A stretch of DNA of 45,008 bases from an uncultured Gammaproteobacteria bacterium. GTDB lineage: Bacteria; Pseudomonadota; Gammaproteobacteria; PS1; Pseudothioglobaceae. The notes beneath the pieces were generated by a model, which was not told the origin of the DNA, did no database searches, and saw only the letters and a list, made by a program, of their open reading frames with translations. The translations under genes were made by a program, and so were the position numbers. This document shows positions 35,896 to 45,008 of the stretch, piece after piece (the first letter of the stretch is position 1; each line of letters begins with the position of its first letter). The stretch covers positions 1 to 45,008 of the forward strand of contig CALCCK010000016.1 of NCBI GenBank assembly GCA_937899995.1, read 5' to 3'.

Positions 35896-38800
35896 ATGCC
35901 ACAACTCTATCTGCAGGATTCTGCACCATTTAAATCTGGACAAAAATTTTATTGGGGCTCGCTCTACGGTAGTGCGCAAGCGCTCGCACTGATTGAATTT
36001 GCCAAAGCGCAAGACCGAGTGGTTTTGGTTATTGCCAATGATATTGTGCATTTTAACCATCTAATTAAATCGCTTAATTTTTACAATGATGACCTTAATA
36101 TTTTACGGTTTGATAACTGGGAGGTCTTAGCCTTTGATCATTTTTCCCCGCATCCAGATATCACCTCAAGTCGACTTAGCACACTAGCTAAATTACCAAG
36201 CCTAACCAAGGGTATTGTTATTACCACGTTAGAGTCTTTATCTCAACAGTTATGTCCATTAGAATTCAGCCAAAAATACAGCTTTAGTTTGCAAATAGGT
36301 GATGTGATCGACATTCATAGCTTTACTGAAAAATTACTAAAAATTGGCTATAACCGAGTTACCACAGTTATGGAGCATGGTGAGTTTAGCGTTAAAGGCT
36401 CGCTAATTGATCTTTATCCAATGGGAGCGAAGTCTCCTTACCGGATTGATTTATTCGACCAAGAAATTGACTCTATTCGCACATTTGACACCTCAACACA
36501 ACGATCAGTCGATGTGACGACTAACGCCCTCTCTCTATTGCCAGCCAGAGAGTTCTCAACAGATGAAGAAAGCCTTGAGCTTTTTAAACAGAACTATCTA
36601 AGCGCTTTTAATCATACGGATGACTTTATCTATACTGAAGTTAGTGAATCACGCCTGCCTGGTGGTATTGAGTTTTATTCGTCATTATTTTTTACGCATA
36701 CCAATACCTTGTTTGACTACTTAGCAGACAATACTATTATTGCATATTATCAAGGTTTTAGTGATTTAGCCGATATAACCTTTGCTGAAATTCACGATAG
36801 GCACCAGCAAGCCAGTCATAATTTAGATAGGCCACCATTGCCGCTTGAACAAGTATTTTTAAGCAAAGAACAACTGTTTATTCAAATTAAGCAACGACAA
36901 CAGCTGGTCATTGGCGCTTCAAAATTAGAAGAAAAACCTGGCAAACTGAACTTTACTAGCAAGTTATTACCGCCTTTAAATATTGATGCCCAAGCCAAGC
37001 ATCCACTGGCCAAATTTTTAAATTTCTCTAAAAAGTTTAAAGGCAAAATACTCATTGTCTGTGAATCAGAAGGTCGACAAAGCGTACTAACTGATCTACT
37101 TAATAATCACGATTTAGCGCCAGTCAATATTGATCATTGGCATGCATTCATACAGGGTGAACAAGAACTCTATATTACCAATGCTGATCTTAGTGATGGC
37201 TTGCTCACAGAAGACATTGCTGTTATCACTGAGGTAAATCTATTTGGCGCTGATGTGGTTAAACAACAAAGGCGTCGTCGTGCAAAGCACAAAGACTTTG
37301 ATGAGGCGATTAAATCCCTAGTAGAGCTCCAAATCGGCGACCCAATTGTGCACGAAAGTTATGGTGTGGGCCGTTATCTAGGTTTAAAAACTCAAAGTTT
37401 TGATGGTCTAGCGCAAGACTTCTTAATGCTAGAATATGCCAATGGTTCTAAGCTTATGGTGCCTATGACTTCGCTCAATTTAATTTCTCGTTATTCAGGC
37501 GCATCCCCAGACAGTGCACCTTTGCATAAACTTGGCACCAACCAATGGACCAAGGCCAAGCAAAAAGCCCATGAGGCGTTGCATGATATTGCTGCTGAAT
37601 TATTAGAGATTTACGCCAAGCGCCAATCACAAACTGGCTTTGCTTTCCCAGAACCGAGTGATGCTTATACCTCCTTTGTCTCGAGCTTCCCGTTTGAAGA
37701 AACCCCAGATCAGCTTAAAACCATGTGTGAGGTTTTGGCTGATATGCAATCTAGACGTCCAATGGACCGGCTGGTGTGTGGTGATGTAGGCTTTGGAAAA
37801 ACTGAAATCGCCATGCGCGCGGCATTCTTGGCAGTTGATTCTGGCAAACAAGTGGTGATATTGGTACCCACTACGCTCTTAGCTAACCAACACCTGCAGT
37901 CATTCAAAGATCGTTTTATCAATTATCCAATTGAAATTGCTGCACTTTCAAGGTTTCAAACACCTAAAGAACAAACACAAATTAAAGCAAAATTACAAAG
38001 TGGCAGAATCGATATTGTTATCGGTACGCACAAGCTCATTCAAGGCAGCATTAAATACCAAGATTTGGGCTTAGTGATTATTGATGAAGAGCACCGATTT
38101 GGCGTTAAACAAAAAGAAACCCTAAAGAAACTGCGTGGCCAAAGTGATATCCTCACCATGACAGCTACACCAATTCCACGCACACTAAATATGGCGCTTG
38201 GATCACTTAGGGAGCTGTCGATCATTGCTACACCACCACAAGGGCGTAGCGCCATACAAACCTTTGTTGATGAGTGGGATGATGACACCATTAAAGAAGC
38301 TTGTTCCCGAGAACTACATCGTGGCGGTCAGATATTTGTTCTGCATAATGAAATTGATTCTATTGATAATATGGCAGAAAACTTAAAAACTTTAATGCCA
38401 AATATTCAAGTGCGTATCGCCCATGGGCAAATGCCTACTCGTGAGTTAGAACGCATCATGAGTGATTTTTACCATGGTCGTTTTCAAATATTAGTTTGTA
38501 CCACCATTATTGAAACAGGTATTGATATTCCTAATGCTAATACCATTATTATCAATAATGCACAAAACTTTGGCTTGGCACAGCTACACCAATTGCGAGG
38601 CCGCGTGGGCCGATCGCACCACAGAGCCTATGCTTATTTAGTAATTAAATCACACCAATCACTCAGTGCCAATGCCAAAAAACGCCTAGATGCAATTGAA
38701 TCCTTAGAAGAACTAGGCGCAGGGTTTATGCTTGCCAATCATGATTTAGAAATCCGTGGTGCGGGAGATTTACTCGGTGATAATCAGTCAGGAAAAATTA

Positions 38801-39330
38801 GTGAGATTGGTTTTAATTTATATCATGATTTACTCAAGCGTACTATTGATGCCATGCGCGCTGGCAAGAAAATTAATTTGGATGACCCGATTAATCATGA
38901 AATCGAAATTGATACTGGGCTTGGGTGCATCATTCCTGAGACTTATCTCGGCGACGTGCACGAACGCTTAGTCTTATACAAACGCATTGCCAACGCTAAA
39001 GATAATGATGAATTGAAAGACTTACAAATCGAGATGATTGATCGTTTTGGCCTATTGCCAGATCCGACTAAAAATCTATTTGCCGCCACGAGGTTAAAAC
39101 TTTTTTCGGAAAAAATCGGAATTGACAAAATTAGTCTATATGATGACAAGGCGCATCTAACTTTTTCAGATAAAACCACGGTTGAGCCAATCAAAATTAT
39201 TAATCTAATCCAGCAGAAGCCTCAAGTTTATCAACTTAAAGGACAGAATCAACTAATTTATAAAGAGAACATGCCTGATGATATCAGACGCATTGAGCAG
39301 GTGAGTGATTTACTCAATAAACTAGTTTAG
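35896..39330 (+). CDS. mfd: Transcription-repair coupling factor
   Basis: A 1,144-residue ATP-dependent translocase that removes stalled RNA polymerase and recruits UvrA. It has the N-terminal UvrB-like domains, a RNA-polymerase-interaction/CarD-like domain (about 475-545, starting QIGDPIVHESYGVGRYLGL), and the helicase core. The core has Walker A GDVGFGKTE (629-637), DEEHR (730-734), TATPIPRT and GRVGRS. A C-terminal TRCF domain follows. Length equals E. coli Mfd (1,148) within a few residues. Its end overlaps the convergent membrane-protein gene by nine bases. Confidence 0.97.
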   Translation: MPQLYLQDSAPFKSGQKFYWGSLYGSAQALALIEFAKAQDRVVLVIANDIVHFNHLIKSLNFYNDDLNILRFDNWEVLAFDHFSPHPDITSSRLSTLAKLPSLTKGIVITTLESLSQQLCPLEFSQKYSFSLQIGDVIDIHSFTEKLLKIGYNRVTTVMEHGEFSVKGSLIDLYPMGAKSPYRIDLFDQEIDSIRTFDTSTQRSVDVTTNALSLLPAREFSTDEESLELFKQNYLSAFNHTDDFIYTEVSESRLPGGIEFYSSLFFTHTNTLFDYLADNTIIAYYQGFSDLADITFAEIHDRHQQASHNLDRPPLPLEQVFLSKEQLFIQIKQRQQLVIGASKLEEKPGKLNFTSKLLPPLNIDAQAKHPLAKFLNFSKKFKGKILIVCESEGRQSVLTDLLNNHDLAPVNIDHWHAFIQGEQELYITNADLSDGLLTEDIAVITEVNLFGADVVKQQRRRRAKHKDFDEAIKSLVELQIGDPIVHESYGVGRYLGLKTQSFDGLAQDFLMLEYANGSKLMVPMTSLNLISRYSGASPDSAPLHKLGTNQWTKAKQKAHEALHDIAAELLEIYAKRQSQTGFAFPEPSDAYTSFVSSFPFEETPDQLKTMCEVLADMQSRRPMDRLVCGDVGFGKTEIAMRAAFLAVDSGKQVVILVPTTLLANQHLQSFKDRFINYPIEIAALSRFQTPKEQTQIKAKLQSGRIDIVIGTHKLIQGSIKYQDLGLVIIDEEHRFGVKQKETLKKLRGQSDILTMTATPIPRTLNMALGSLRELSIIATPPQGRSAIQTFVDEWDDDTIKEACSRELHRGGQIFVLHNEIDSIDNMAENLKTLMPNIQVRIAHGQMPTRELERIMSDFYHGRFQILVCTTIIETGIDIPNANTIIINNAQNFGLAQLHQLRGRVGRSHHRAYAYLVIKSHQSLSANAKKRLDAIESLEELGAGFMLANHDLEIRGAGDLLGDNQSGKISEIGFNLYHDLLKRTIDAMRAGKKINLDDPINHEIEIDTGLGCIIPETYLGDVHERLVLYKRIANAKDNDELKDLQIEMIDRFGLLPDPTKNLFAATRLKLFSEKIGIDKISLYDDKAHLTFSDKTTVEPIKIINLIQQKPQVYQLKGQNQLIYKENMPDDIRRIEQVSDLLNKLV

Positions 39331-39891
39331 TTTATTCCTAATGATTACTGGTAAGAAAATCTTAACAATCAAGAATACAAACACCAGACCACCCAAGATA
39401 TCGCCTGTTAGATAACTCAGTATAAACTGTAATGCATCCACCTCTTTGCCATCAACACCCTTAACTTTGTCAACAAATAAGAAAAATTTAGCTAACGTAT
39501 TAATCAATGACGACAATATCACCAAAAAAATAATATGTCCATAGACAAGCTTGTCATCTTTAAAGAAATTGGATAAATGGAAGATCCTCATGATACTAAT
39601 AGCCGCCATAGGCGCCAAGACACCTGCCATAGTACCGATTGGCCCATAGAAAGTATTACCATTCCAACTGTCATATAGCAATACACCACTCATTAACGAA
39701 CCCAGTAGTACACCCGGAAACGCCCAAAAGCCAAATATTAAAAACGCCAAAATTTTCGCACCCATTGGCAACCATAGATAATTTCCAATAGTAATATCGC
39801 CAGCGTCAAAATGTGACATTAGGTCAGAGGTTAAAAAAACGACTACGGCAGTAATAATAGTTGTTTTAATGAATGTTGATGTATCTATCAT
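39322..39891 (-). CDS. Small MASE1-like membrane protein (third of a tandem set)
   Basis: A 189-residue protein with about six hydrophobic segments and no soluble domain. The segment NYLWLPMGAKILAFLIFG...FPGVLLGS (37-62) and the end SYLTGDILGGLVFVF are shared, position for position, with the gene at 40502-41056. Both resemble parts of the MASE1 sensory membrane domain (a P-G-A motif, then G-PG, then a GD.LG near the end), but there is no kinase, GGDEF or EAL output. The start ATG lies nine bases after the preceding gene. Function is unknown. Confidence 0.75.
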   Translation of the reverse strand: MIDTSTFIKTTIITAVVVFLTSDLMSHFDAGDITIGNYLWLPMGAKILAFLIFGFWAFPGVLLGSLMSGVLLYDSWNGNTFYGPIGTMAGVLAPMAAISIMRIFHLSNFFKDDKLVYGHIIFLVILSSLINTLAKFFLFVDKVKGVDGKEVDALQFILSYLTGDILGGLVFVFLIVKIFLPVIIRNKLN

Positions 39892-39899
39892 ATTAAATC

Positions 39900-40463
39900 T
39901 TAGACTAAGAATGAATTAGCTCTTTTAAAATAAGTAATAATTTTAATCACGCAATAAACTATGACTAAAGTTCCTATTAAGTCTAATGTAAATAATGTAT
40001 AAAAATAGTCAGCTATGTCAGGTACTGCAACTTTCTCAATTAAAACTACGCCTGTAAAGAGTTTAAATATCGAACAAAATAACGCTTGAATGGCGGTCAA
40101 GAATAATATCTGTTTGAAGGTTAAGGACGTAATAGTGGAAATATGGATTTTTTTAAAAGAAGACATTATAAACAAGGATAATGAAGGTGCAAATGTACAT
40201 GTAAAAATGGACATTGCCGACTCTACAACAAGGATATTGGTCTGCTGTTTAAATATTAGAATACTAACAGTAATTGCAATAAGCACACCAGGAATCATGC
40301 GAAGACCAAATAGAACATAGCATAAGAGAGCAGCACCGCCAATTAGATTTATATTAACAACTGCCCACTGCTTTTCGAATAATACTGACGCATAAGCAAA
40401 CACTAAAATTATTAAAAATGTAATACCGTTGCCTAATAAGGGTTCTTGAGAAGTGTGTTTCAT
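39900..40463 (-). CDS. Small membrane protein, diverged member of the tandem set
   Basis: A 187-residue protein with about six hydrophobic segments. It keeps the layout of its two neighbours but little sequence: GGAALLCYVLFGLRMIPGV (42-60) stands where they have LPxGAKIL.FLIFG....PGV. HIS-TSLTFKQILFL matches their HI.FL segment, and FTLDLIGTLVIVY stands for their GD.LGG end. Its size, order and spacing (8 and 38 bases to the neighbours) support one operon. Function is unknown. Confidence 0.7.
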   Translation of the reverse strand: MKHTSQEPLLGNGITFLIILVFAYASVLFEKQWAVVNINLIGGAALLCYVLFGLRMIPGVLIAITVSILIFKQQTNILVVESAMSIFTCTFAPSLSLFIMSSFKKIHISTITSLTFKQILFLTAIQALFCSIFKLFTGVVLIEKVAVPDIADYFYTLFTLDLIGTLVIVYCVIKIITYFKRANSFLV

Positions 40464-40501
40464 TGAGCAACTACATTACCTTATGGACTATATATAATTT
40501 T

Positions 40502-41056
40502 CTATGCTCTTACTGTCGACACAACAAAAGGTAATATTTTCAATACTATCCATATCACCACAATACCACCTAGCATATCACCTACTAAATAATGCGTTAG
40601 AAAGTCAACTGGATTTATACTAAATACTGAACTCTTGGCGTAGATGATAAATCGACTTATTGCATGAAGTATTGAAGTGAAGAAAATCAGAAATAAAATA
40701 TGTCTGAAATTAATTTTCTCTAATTGAGAATAATTGGCCACTTTGAAGTACTCCAATATCCATATCGAAGCAATGGGGGTGATTGCTCCCAATATGGCAC
40801 CGGCGGCACCCCAAACAAAATTACCACCCCACGAAGAAAACAAAACAACGCCACAGAAGACACAACTAAACATAACACCAGGCAAAACGTGTTTACCAAA
40901 AATTAAAAACACCAAGATCTTAGCGCCAATCGGTAAATATAAATACGAACCCACTTGCACATCAAAACCTGATAAATTTATCATGAGTATAGAAGATAAA
41001 AAAACAGCTATAAACGCAATTAAGTTATCAACAATAATACTTTTGGTGTTTTCCAT
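40502..41056 (-). CDS. Small MASE1-like membrane protein (first of a tandem set)
   Basis: A 184-residue protein with six predicted membrane segments at about 9-27, 38-53, 56-75, 79-101, 118-138 and 155-178. Shared with the gene at 39322-39891 are YLPIGAKILVFLIFG, PGV, SWxGN, a glycine-rich fourth segment, HI.FL and YLVGDMLGGIV. The charged residues inside membranes (the K of GAK and the D of GDMLGG) are conserved in both, which suggests a binding or transport role and not mere anchoring. GGAAAAC lies before the ATG. It follows the winged-helix gene by 114 bases. Confidence 0.75.
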   Translation of the reverse strand: MENTKSIIVDNLIAFIAVFLSSILMINLSGFDVQVGSYLYLPIGAKILVFLIFGKHVLPGVMFSCVFCGVVLFSSWGGNFVWGAAGAILGAITPIASIWILEYFKVANYSQLEKINFRHILFLIFFTSILHAISRFIIYAKSSVFSINPVDFLTHYLVGDMLGGIVVIWIVLKILPFVVSTVRA

Positions 41057-41170
41057 TTATAGTTTTCCATAAATTAAATATATTTATTTTTTTCTAAAAA
41101 TGTCGATTAAACTTTACCGTACTTTTACTTAACAACCCATAAAGACCTTCTTTTGGTGTTATTAATAATT

Positions 41171-41452
41171 TTAATTATTATAGGTAAGAATCATCGAACG
41201 TCTATCATGCTTCGATTGATTAGCACTAATAACGTCATCAGCCAACAAAACACCCACGGCCCTTTTGATGGTAGACAGCGAAAATTTAGAAAAATATTGG
41301 TTTTTAGTAACAGTTGTAATAGTTACATCTTTTTGATGTATGACAAACTCTAAAACTGCTTTTTCTACTTCTGAAAACTGATCAAAGCCCAATTCACGCT
41401 CATAATTATCCAACGACTCTCTTAGTTCAAATAATTTCATTAACGAACCCAT
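41171..41452 (-). CDS. Small winged-helix (MarR-like) regulator
   Basis: A 93-residue protein that looks like a compact winged-helix DNA-binding domain: FSEVEKAVLEFVI (helix), VTKNQYFSKFSLSTIKRAVGVLLADDVIS (helix-turn-helix), and a basic wing QSKHDRRSMILTYN. I chose the ATG at 41452 because GGGGAG sits five bases before it. Earlier in-frame ATGs at 41485 and 41470 lie inside a pentanucleotide repeat and lack a ribosome site. It lies upstream of, and parallel to, the three membrane-protein genes and may regulate them. Confidence 0.65.
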   Translation of the reverse strand: MGSLMKLFELRESLDNYERELGFDQFSEVEKAVLEFVIHQKDVTITTVTKNQYFSKFSLSTIKRAVGVLLADDVISANQSKHDRRSMILTYNN

Positions 41453-41462
41453 AAAAACTCCC

Positions 41463-41487
41463 CATAACATAACATAACATGACATGA
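41463..41487 (-). repeat. Pentanucleotide tandem repeat in a leader region
   Basis: Five 5-base units on + (CATAA three times, CATGA twice); on - each unit ends in ATG. The array lies between a candidate extended -10 (TGGTATATT, near 41490-41498 on -) and the ribosome site of the winged-helix gene. Unit gain or loss would change the leader length and the frame of two upstream ATG codons. Confidence 0.8.
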
Positions 41488-41530
41488 CAAATATACCATA
41501 ATTCTTATTATTTACAGCTCAATTTTATTG

Positions 41531-41736: not shown

Positions 41737-42009
41737 ATGATTACTGATAAATTAATCAATGAAATAGCTTTAGAAGCAGGAATATCTAGAGCAGATGCTA
41801 AACATATACTGCAAATAATAACTGATACTATTATAGAGTCAATTGCTCATGGTGAGAAAGTTGAGCTAGATGGTTTTGGCAGTTTCTTTTCTAAGCCTTT
41901 GTCTGCATATGCGCAAGAAGATAAAAATACCACAAACGTCAACATGAATGTGCTTGCTTTTAAACAAAGTAACGCTTTAAGTGCATCTATTAACCAGACT
42001 TATAAATAA
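41737..42009 (+). CDS. HU/IHF-like protein with atypical arm
   Basis: A 90-residue member of the bacterial histone-like HU/IHF family. The N-terminal helices (ITDKLINEIALEAGISRADA), the GEKVELDGFGSF turn (39-50) and the C-terminal LAFKQSNALSASIN fit the fold. The beta-arm between them (51-72) is about four residues shorter than in HU and lacks the RxGRNPxTG motif, including the intercalating proline, and is rich in Asn and Thr. It may not bend DNA, or may bind something else. AGGGG precedes the ATG, and a TATAAT lies at 41721-41726, very close to the gene. Confidence 0.8.
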   Translation: MITDKLINEIALEAGISRADAKHILQIITDTIIESIAHGEKVELDGFGSFFSKPLSAYAQEDKNTTNVNMNVLAFKQSNALSASINQTYK

Positions 42010-42160: not shown

Positions 42161-42199
42161 TTAACTATGCTAAAGCAAAAGCTCGCCATAATTTTGTTG
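42090..42199. repeat. 18-bp direct repeat at the end of the PfkB gene
   Basis: CTCGCCATAATTTTGTTG occurs at 42090-42107 and again at 42182-42199, where it encodes the last residues (QQNYGE) of the PfkB-family enzyme. The outer copy lies in non-coding DNA 92 bases away. It may mark an old duplication, deletion or insertion boundary next to the accessory stretch. Confidence 0.8.
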
Positions 42200-43111
42200 A
42201 TATAGACGTTCAATTTCGGCCAAATCAAACTGATGGTTTTGCGTACCTAAATGTGCAATTTTAATCGCACCCAACAATCCTGCCAACTGACCAGTAGTCT
42301 TCCAATCTAGATCATTCATTAGTCCATACAATAACCCGGCACGATAAGCATCCCCACAGCCTGTCGGATCTTGTGTTGCGTTAGCCTTAGCAGGGGCAAT
42401 GTTAATGACTTCGCCTCCGGTATGGATCTCACTACCATCGCCGCCTTTGGTAATAATCAGCGCATCTACCATTGAGGCGATGGTTTGCACATCAAGCCCA
42501 GTTTTGTCTTGCAACATTTGTGATTCATAATCATTCATAGCCACATAAGTTGCCTGCTCAACAAATGTGGTAAGCTCTTCACCTGAAAACATGGGCATGC
42601 CCTGACCTGGATCAAACATAAAAGGTATGCCAGCATCAGCAAACTGTTTCGCATGCTCGATCATACCATCGCGCCCATCTGGGGAAACAATGCCAATATC
42701 AACATTGCTAGCATCGCTGACTTTATTTTGATGAGAATTACTCATTGCCCCCGGATGAAAAGCCGTGATTTGATTGTCGTCCATGTCAGTAGTAATAAAG
42801 GCTTGACCTGTATAAGTGTCTTTAATCACTTTAATATGTGTAGTATTCATATGGTGAGTTTCCATCCAGCCCATGTATGGTGCAAAATCCTCGCCTACGG
42901 TTGCCATAGGCACAGAATTGGCACCTAGCATATGCAAATTGTAAGCGATATTGCCACCACAACCACCAAACTCTTTGCGCAACGTTGGCACTAAAAAAGA
43001 AATATTTAACATGTGTACCTTATCTGGCAAGATGTGATTTTTAAACTGGTCTTGAAAAACCATAATCGAATCAAAGGCATAAGAGCCACAAATCAGTGCT
43101 TTTTTTGTCAT
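42170..43111 (-). CDS. PfkB-family sugar/nucleoside kinase, adenosine-kinase-like
   Basis: A 313-residue ribokinase-family enzyme. The N-terminal ALICGSYAFDSIMVF, the FGGCGGNIAYNLHMLG substrate block (48-63), and the C-terminal DPTGCGDAYRAGLLYGL with catalytic D254 are seen. The GCGDA form, with cysteine instead of the usual alanine, and YAFDSIM recall bacterial adenosine kinases, so salvage of adenosine to AMP is the likely reaction, but sugars cannot be excluded. I chose the ATG at 43111 (AAGGAG about ten bases upstream) over one at 43138. Confidence 0.85.
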   Translation of the reverse strand: MTKKALICGSYAFDSIMVFQDQFKNHILPDKVHMLNISFLVPTLRKEFGGCGGNIAYNLHMLGANSVPMATVGEDFAPYMGWMETHHMNTTHIKVIKDTYTGQAFITTDMDDNQITAFHPGAMSNSHQNKVSDASNVDIGIVSPDGRDGMIEHAKQFADAGIPFMFDPGQGMPMFSGEELTTFVEQATYVAMNDYESQMLQDKTGLDVQTIASMVDALIITKGGDGSEIHTGGEVINIAPAKANATQDPTGCGDAYRAGLLYGLMNDLDWKTTGQLAGLLGAIKIAHLGTQNHQFDLAEIERLYQQNYGELLL

Positions 43112-43160
43112 GTTATTTTTTCTCCTTATTTTATGCAATTCGGCATAAGTCCTGCCTATG

Positions 43161-44491: not shown

Positions 44492-44873
44492 GTAGTGCTT
44501 GCAACAACTGGTGTACTTTATCACGTAAGTCTCGGCGATGTACAATTAGATCAATGGCTCCTTTTTCTAATAAGAACTCACTACGTTGAAAGCCCTCAGG
44601 TAGGGTTTCACGTACAGTTTGTTCAACCACACGTGGCCCAGCAAATCCAATCAGGGCATTCGGCTCAGCAATGTGGATATCACCCAACATAGCAAAACTG
44701 GCGGATACACCGCCCATGGTTGGGTCAGTCAGGATAGAGAAGAATGGAATTTTCTTATCACTAAGGAATTTTAAAATCAAAGCAGTTTTGCTCATTTGCA
44801 TCAAAGAAAATAAGCCTTCTTGCATACGTGCACCACCCGAAGCTGAAAAACAAATAAGTGGTGAATTGGTACG
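44484..44873 (-). CDS. accD: Acetyl-CoA carboxylase carboxyltransferase beta subunit, C-terminal fragment
   Basis: About 130 residues of the carboxyltransferase beta subunit, which with AccA makes malonyl-CoA. Visible are [55 protein letters not shown] and [15 protein letters not shown], near identical in layout to E. coli AccD. The N-terminal zinc domain is missing because the contig ends in adapter; the residues MLFRS that precede the insert in frame are adapter-derived. The C-terminus stops soon after [13 protein letters not shown], without the tail of E. coli AccD. Confidence 0.95.
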
Positions 44874-45008
44874 AGATCGGAAGAGCACACGTCTGAACTC
44901 CAGTCACAAGCCTATATCGTATGCCGGCGTCTGCTTGAAAAAAAAAAAGTTAAACACGGACTCACAGTAGATAGACTATCAAGCCATCCGAACTGACTGC
45001 GAACCAAC
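44874..45008. other. Sequencing adapter and read noise, not genomic
   Basis: Bases 44874-44907 match the TruSeq read-2 adapter (AGATCGGAAGAGCACACGTC onward), 44908-44913 are the index AAGCCT, and 44914-44937 match the P7 end with three mismatches. Eleven A and 60 unassignable bases follow. The index is the reverse complement of the one at the other contig end. Confidence 0.97.

What the first reader, a model, noticed from the sequence alone, without database searches (positions are those of the whole stretch)
39322..41452. Operon of three stand-alone MASE1-like membrane proteins under a small winged-helix regulator
Two genes are clear paralogues, sharing YL.LP.GAKIL.FLIFG, PGV, SW.GN and YL.GD.LGG, and the middle one is a diverged third. 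MASE1 is normally the N-terminal sensor of kinases and cyclic-di-GMP enzymes; here the membrane part appears alone, tripled and next to a regulator. Charged residues inside the membrane segments are kept in both paralogues. A hetero-oligomeric receptor, transporter or envelope system is possible. The set lies between core genes, so it is probably a lineage-specific insertion.
Basis: partly seen in the sequence, partly recalled or inferred. Interest (0 to 1): 0.7.

Follow-up and report, generated by a model that had tools for sequence, protein, structure and literature searches.

The report
Winged-helix regulator with mini-MASE1 receptor array
A small DNA-binding protein is encoded next to one to five copies of a short membrane protein that looks like the sensing half of known bacterial receptors; the pairing recurs across distant bacteria and we found no description of it, which suggests a simple and unstudied way of passing a signal from the membrane to the DNA.

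Summary
Window 39322-41452 (minus strand) carries a 93-aa winged-helix protein followed by three ~185-aa, six-helix membrane proteins (A, B, C). A and C are close paralogues; B is a diverged third. All three are stand-alone 'mini-MASE1' proteins covering only the first ~180 of ~300 MASE1 residues. AlphaFold models of A and B resemble ECF-transporter S-components (TM up to 0.64). No EcfT was found in the genome, so ECF uptake is unlikely.

The array (1-5 copies) sits at the same mfd-pfkB site in six genera of the family, while sampled genomes without it have mfd and pfkB almost touching; its content turns over faster than its flanks. The winged-helix plus mini-MASE1 pair is also not lineage-specific: the two co-occur in the family (41 both, 39 neither, 3 discordant), and 9 of 11 independent mini-MASE1 sites elsewhere in the phylum have a small winged-helix gene beside them.

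Best reading (inferred): a two-gene sensor working like SdpRI, in which an S-fold membrane receptor binds a ligand and controls a cognate winged-helix autoregulator, with the receptors diversified as an array. Ligand and mechanism are untested. I found no published description.

The parts
41171..41452 (-). 93-aa winged-helix DNA-binding protein (MarR/SarA-like), first gene of the set; the ATG at 41452 is the start shared by homologues
   Evidence: Pfam SarA/Rot sub-threshold, E 3.3e-4; profile hits MarR structures weakly; family alignment of 15 homologues; co-occurs with mini-MASE1
40502..41056 (-). gene A: 184-aa mini-MASE1, six helices, S-component-like fold; orthologues hold the regulator-proximal slot in the genus
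   Evidence: MASE1 28.6 bits vs cut-off 29.8; AlphaFold pLDDT 89.8, top PDB matches RibU/ThiT; tree
39900..40463 (-). gene B: 187-aa diverged mini-MASE1, same predicted fold, has lost K46 but keeps R/K135, D160 and G163
   Evidence: E 1.2e-7 from A by single sequence, 2.6e-40 by profile; AlphaFold pLDDT 88.9, ThiT TM 0.63; one near relative, in L043, 56% identity
39322..39891 (-). gene C: 189-aa mini-MASE1, 37% identical to A, its end overlapping the convergent mfd by 9 bp
   Evidence: MASE1 18.3 bits; tree
35896..39330 (+). mfd, one conserved flank of the array site (not part of the module)
42170..43138 (-). pfkB-family kinase, the other conserved flank (not part of the module); ends next to mfd in genomes without the array
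   Evidence: Pfam PfkB E 8e-34

Best explanation
A two-part membrane-to-DNA sensor with a diversified receptor array. Each mini-MASE1 protein is an inner-membrane receptor with the six-helix S-component fold (N and C termini inside, conserved loops and helix ends forming an outward pocket). The co-encoded winged-helix protein is its cytoplasmic partner and most likely the autoregulator of the operon; ligand binding outside changes whether the membrane protein holds or releases the regulator, as SdpI does with SdpR. Duplicated and exchanged receptor genes give each species its own set of ligands feeding one regulator. Shown: gene order, homology, predicted fold, absence of EcfT, linkage of the two gene families across the phylum, array turnover. 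Inferred: ligand binding, physical contact between regulator and receptor, autoregulation.
For: Linkage: in 83 genomes of the family 41 have both, 39 neither, 1 only the regulator, and 2 only mini-MASE1 (both incomplete assemblies; in one the array is cut at a contig end) (Fisher p 4e-20 ignoring phylogeny). Outside the family, small winged-helix genes sit next to mini-MASE1 in 9 of 11 independent sites: L115, L116, L117, the L137/138/140 orthologues, L139, L141, L142, L183, L185, in operon or head-to-head order. Fold: top PDB matches of both models are ECF S-components (A TM 0.52-0.59; B up to 0.64), followed by a drop to about 0.2. The S-component fold is shared by transporters and sensor kinases (PMC11109136), and MASE1 domains are signalling domains that bind cytoplasmic protein partners, e.g. 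RdcA with DgcE (PMC6510439). No EcfT/CbiQ hit in the genome. In three other-locus cases (L044, L046, L050) a mini-MASE1 gene follows a periplasmic-binding histidine kinase and a LuxR-type response regulator on the same strand, again a signalling context. Positive-inside charges fit N-in/C-in with L1, L3 and L5 outside. [quoted passage not shown]
Against: No ligand, no shown contact, no conserved operator palindrome upstream of the regulator. Foldseek E-values are weak (0.05-1) although probabilities are 0.8-1.0 for the top S-component matches. A regulator next to a transporter gene is also the ordinary layout of a transport operon. Two of the 11 outside sites (L143, L184) lack a recognisable winged helix. 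The regulator's target promoters are unknown.
Confidence: 0.45

Rival explanations
1. A small-solute uptake operon: mini-MASE1 proteins are solitary S-component-like carriers (as some BioY and BtuM work without an ECF module) under an ordinary local repressor.
For: S-component-like models; solitary S-components can transport (PMC11109136); a repressor beside a carrier gene is common; single-gene loci occur.
Against: No EcfT in the genome; sequence kinship is to MASE1 sensor domains and not to any transporter family; no constant metabolic neighbour accompanies the module across sites; a mini-MASE1 gene also sits behind a two-component system.
Confidence: 0.25
2. A self-protection or interference locus: variable membrane proteins give immunity to envelope-active peptides or phage, and the regulator switches them on, as in SdpRI immunity.
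For: Array content changes between genomes whose mfd is 91-93% identical; copies decay in some genomes (stops inside); pairs such as L033-L049 share array genes at 89-90% while mfd is 75%, consistent with exchange between genera.
Against: No PADLOC or PHROG match of weight for the membrane proteins; no toxin or bacteriocin gene recognised beside the arrays; no viral relatives found; dN/dS about 0.06-0.3 for most pairs shows purifying selection.
Confidence: 0.15
3. The proteins act in trans as detached MASE1 sensory subunits for histidine kinases or cyclic-di-GMP enzymes, or as MreD-like envelope organisers; the winged helix only sets their level.
For: MASE1 is normally the input part of such enzymes; one sub-family follows a kinase/response-regulator pair; MreD shares the S-component fold (PMC11109136).
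Against: At the main site and at the sites outside the family the constant neighbour is the winged helix and not a kinase or GGDEF/EAL enzyme; no MreD match in Pfam scans.
Confidence: 0.1

Closest known systems
MASE1 (PF05231) membrane sensor domain of DgcE, YfgF and histidine kinases
   Same: Detectable sequence homology over the first ~180-200 residues, with the shared motifs LP.G(A/K) in helix 2, FG/PG after it and GD..G in helix 6
   Different: About 185 aa instead of ~300 (the C-terminal helices are absent), no fused output domain, encoded beside a winged-helix protein, often in tandem
S-component fold proteins: ECF S-components (RibU, ThiT, BioY), 5TMR sensor kinases (BtsS, YpdA), MreD
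   Same: Predicted six-helix fold; RibU, ThiT and BioY are the top solved-structure matches; N-in/C-in charge pattern
   Different: No sequence-level match to the 5TMR family or to any PDB chain; no EcfT in the genome; MASE1 is not named in the paper that defined the shared fold
SdpRI of Bacillus subtilis (autorepressor plus membrane receptor/immunity protein)
   Same: Two-gene layout of a small repressor-like DNA-binding protein and a polytopic membrane protein; proposed logic
   Different: Different phylum; no homology was tested; receptor duplicated into arrays here; no toxin gene found nearby
MarR/SarA-type winged-helix regulators
   Same: Winged-helix fold, weak Pfam and PDB-sequence matches
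   Different: Only ~93 aa and below the MarR and SarA cut-offs; a family of its own defined by LF.LR..L..yE..(L/M)G and S.STIKR.V

Membership tests
MASE1 (PF05231) | Score above the Pfam gathering cut-off (29.8 bits) | tested here: not met
   A 28.6, C 18.3, B no hit
MASE1 (PF05231) | Homology to MASE1 by profile comparison | tested here: met
   hhalign family vs full-length MASE1 proteins 99.0%, E 1.8e-17; 96.2%, E 2.6e-9 against a set drawn only by Pfam; 5TMR and EamA controls 0.1%
MASE1 (PF05231) | Full ~300-residue domain with 8-10 membrane helices | tested here: not met
   ~185 aa, six helices, matching profile positions ~4-175 of 299
MASE1 (PF05231) | Fused to a kinase, GGDEF or EAL output domain | tested here: not met
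   Stand-alone ORFs in the window and in relatives in the family
ECF S-component | Six-helix S-component fold | tested here: met
   Predicted models only: TM 0.5-0.64 to RibU/ThiT/BioY; Foldseek E-values weak
ECF S-component | EcfT (CbiQ family) partner in the genome | tested here: not met
   No PF02361 hit in a 99%-complete genome; control genomes positive
ECF S-component | Binds and transports a vitamin-like solute | not testable with these tools
   Needs binding or uptake assays
SdpRI-like receptor/autorepressor pair (works-like) | Small winged-helix gene adjacent to a polytopic membrane gene, conserved as a pair | tested here: met
   41 of 83 genomes have both, 3 discordant, in the family; 9 of 11 outside sites
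SdpRI-like receptor/autorepressor pair (works-like) | Regulator binds its own promoter and is sequestered by the membrane protein | not testable with these tools
   Needs bench work; no conserved operator palindrome seen upstream
MarR/SarA regulators | Above a curated Pfam cut-off | tested here: not met
   SarA/Rot 21.1 bits vs 27

The most novel reading that the evidence does not exclude
A widespread but undescribed class of two-gene membrane-to-DNA sensors in Pseudomonadota: a stand-alone S-fold (half-MASE1) receptor signals directly to a cognate ~93-aa winged-helix protein, without kinase or second messenger, and in one lineage the receptors form an exchangeable array feeding a single regulator.
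Probability: 0.4. Interest if true: 0.75.

Novelty: new variant of a known kind. Interest (0 to 1): 0.55.

Why it matters
MASE1 domains have long been known as enigmatic inputs of kinases and c-di-GMP enzymes. A naturally detached half-MASE1 that co-occurs with one small DNA-binding protein would give a very simple system in which to ask what MASE1 senses and how it passes the signal on. It would also extend the transporter/receptor 'S-component fold' to the MASE1 family, which the paper defining that fold does not mention. The variable arrays in small-genome bacteria offer natural receptor swaps on one regulator.

Tried and rejected
ECF transporter membership: rejected, no EcfT. Defence system: no PADLOC hit for the membrane proteins; CARF hits of the winged helix are weak and fit a shared winged-helix part. 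Viral or mobile origin: no relatives in viral contigs. 5TMR sensor kinase homology: no sequence signal, so only the fold links them. Sequence match to a solved structure: none for the membrane proteins; prion hits of the winged-helix profile are chance at E 0.04-1. Shared operator upstream of the regulator: none found, only a common -10-like TATAAT in many relatives. Promoter/terminator scan: promoter-like sites exceed shuffles (31 vs 15.5) but are not specific to the operon; the only terminator-like site, 39289-39273 inside mfd, is no more than chance (1 found, 1.7 expected). The wide genome-contig search with the profile could not run, and with one protein it found a single relative. The winged helices of L117, L138, L139 and L140 were not linked directly to the family type (hhalign 1%); the L183 and L185 proteins match the former well and the latter weakly, so they may be one diverged family, not proven. 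Recent transfer between L033 and L049: the array genes are 89-90% identical against 75% for mfd, but dS is 0.8-0.9, so any exchange is not recent.
Full report
WHAT IS THERE. On the minus strand between the convergent flanks mfd (35896-39330) and a pfkB-family kinase gene (42170-43138) lie four same-strand genes: a winged-helix gene (41171-41452), A (40502-41056), B (39900-40463) and C (39322-39891), with gaps of 114, 38 and 8 bp; C overlaps the end of mfd by 9 bp. An HU-like gene (41737-42009) lies on the other strand between the winged helix and pfkB. A single-sequence search of the whole genome with A finds only C (E 2e-36) and B (E 1e-7), so the three are paralogues and B is a real, if diverged, member. 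Profile search raises B to E 2.6e-40.

FAMILY AND FOLD. Pfam MASE1 is just missed (A 28.6 vs 29.8 bits; C 18.3; B none), but 42 of 64 homologues hit it, best E 4e-10. Profile-profile comparison with full-length MASE1 proteins gives 99.0% (E 1.8e-17), and 96.2% (E 2.6e-9) when the MASE1 set was drawn only by Pfam; 5TMR and EamA controls gave 0.1%. The match covers only the first part of MASE1. AlphaFold models of A (pLDDT 89.8) and, run separately, B (88.9) have six main helices. Their best solved-structure matches are ECF S-components: A to RibU and ThiT, TM 0.52-0.59, probability up to 0.99; B to ThiT, RibU and BioY, TM up to 0.64, probability up to 1.00; other folds follow mostly at about 0.2-0.3. 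Foldseek E-values are weak (0.05-1), so the fold assignment rests on two diverged members agreeing, the near-exclusive top ranking and the charge pattern: N-terminus, L2 and C-terminus positive, L1, L3 and L5 acidic. The alignments behind the two models share most of their rows, so they are not fully independent. Among the most conserved positions are G44, G54, P94, H119, R/K135, D160 and G163. Partipilo and Slotboom 2024 (PMC11109136) define this 'S-component fold' for ECF S-components, 5TMR kinases and MreD; MASE1 is not mentioned in it.

THE SITE AND ITS HISTORY. The main site is the 3' end of mfd, with the winged-helix gene between array and pfkB. Copy number runs from 1 to 5. In sampled genomes without the array, mfd and pfkB lie almost end to end: -8 to +15 bp in G053, G034, G001 and G006. 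On an mfd tree with 8 such genomes, presence/absence needs five changes; one row counted as absent (L071) still holds a decayed copy, and the direction (gain or loss) cannot be told. The gene tree splits the members into sub-families that recur in different combinations: the window has A+B+C, L047 has A+II+C, L053 has A+II, where II is a sub-family the window lacks, while their mfd proteins are 91-93% identical. L033 and L049, from different genera, share their two mfd-proximal array genes at 89-90% identity against 75% for mfd, which suggests exchange, though dS of 0.8-0.9 says not recently. Most pairs are under purifying selection (dN/dS about 0.06-0.3; regulator and mfd about 0.04-0.05); B against its one relative is near 0.76, i.e. 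relaxed, diversifying or saturated. Several genomes hold decayed copies with internal stops.

THE PAIRING. In the family 41 genomes have regulator and mini-MASE1, 39 neither, 1 only the regulator, 2 only mini-MASE1 (both incomplete assemblies; in one the array is cut at a contig end); Fisher p 4e-20 ignoring shared ancestry. The genomes are related, so the independent test is outside the family. There, among 11 independent mini-MASE1 sites, nine have a small winged-helix gene as neighbour: L115 (two mini-MASE1 genes) and L116, found separately by both family profiles; L117, the orthologous L137/L138/L140, L139, L141 and L142; L183 and L185, the latter in another class of the phylum, found with the mini-MASE1 profile A5 alone. 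L143 and L184 lack one. The arrangement is operonic in some and head-to-head in others. Outside-family mini-MASE1 proteins and the window's family are homologous (hhalign 99.2%, E 1.5e-19; A5 finds window gene C at E 4e-9). A second type of context occurs inside the family: in L044, L046 and L050 a mini-MASE1 gene follows, on the same strand, a kinase with a periplasmic phosphonate-binding-type domain and a LuxR-type response regulator.

HOW IT MOST LIKELY WORKS. MASE1 is a signalling domain; in DgcE it is the docking site of a cytoplasmic activator (PMC6510439). The S-component fold binds small ligands in transporters and sensor kinases (PMC11109136). A membrane protein of this kind whose constant partner is a ~93-aa DNA-binding protein is most simply read as a receptor/regulator pair. 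The closest characterised logic is SdpI/SdpR, where the membrane protein responds to an external ligand by sequestering the autorepressor encoded with it (PMC1626106). Several receptors feeding one regulator would let a small genome respond to several ligands. None of ligand binding, contact or autoregulation is shown. No conserved operator was found. The uptake reading remains the main rival because solitary S-components exist, but EcfT is absent and no constant metabolic neighbour accompanies the module.

NOVELTY. Literature searches for MASE1 with winged helix, stand-alone MASE1, Thioglobus or Polynucleobacter returned nothing, within an open-access library only. I rate it a new variant of a known kind: a known domain family, cut down and detached, in a new and conserved two-gene arrangement.

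Noticed in passing
window 44872-45008: The contig end reads through an Illumina TruSeq adapter (agatcggaagagcacacgtctgaactccagtcac ... tatgccg ... ctgcttg) followed by poly-A and unrelated bases, so the last ~135 bases are probably not genomic and ORFs there are artefacts.
   Followed up: partly
window 41463-41501: A five-base tandem repeat (CATAA, 8 copies) lies just upstream of the winged-helix start codon; length changes could alter its expression.
   Followed up: no
window 41737-42009: A diverged HU-like gene between the winged helix and pfkB, also present in only a few relatives (L055, L057, L058), in some as a canonical HU copy.
   Followed up: partly
L044, L046, L050: A periplasmic phosphonate-binding-type domain fused to a histidine kinase plus a LuxR-type response regulator (TtrS/TtrR-like layout), followed by a mini-MASE1 gene, with a GGCT-like gene and, in L046 and L050, a putative c-type cytochrome (CxxCH motif, no Pfam hit) nearby.
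   Followed up: partly
L033 8772-9080, L056 5868-6155, L057 1028-1315, L058 5016-5330: A second, diverged winged-helix paralogue lies just upstream of the first in several genomes, so the regulator is duplicated too.
   Followed up: no
L037, L038, L052, L060-L063, L066, L067 (genus g5) versus the others: The pfkB-family gene flanking the site is of a different type in genus g5 (about 332 aa, MKKYDIYGIGAAIVDTEV) from that in the window's genus, as if replaced at the same locus.
   Followed up: no
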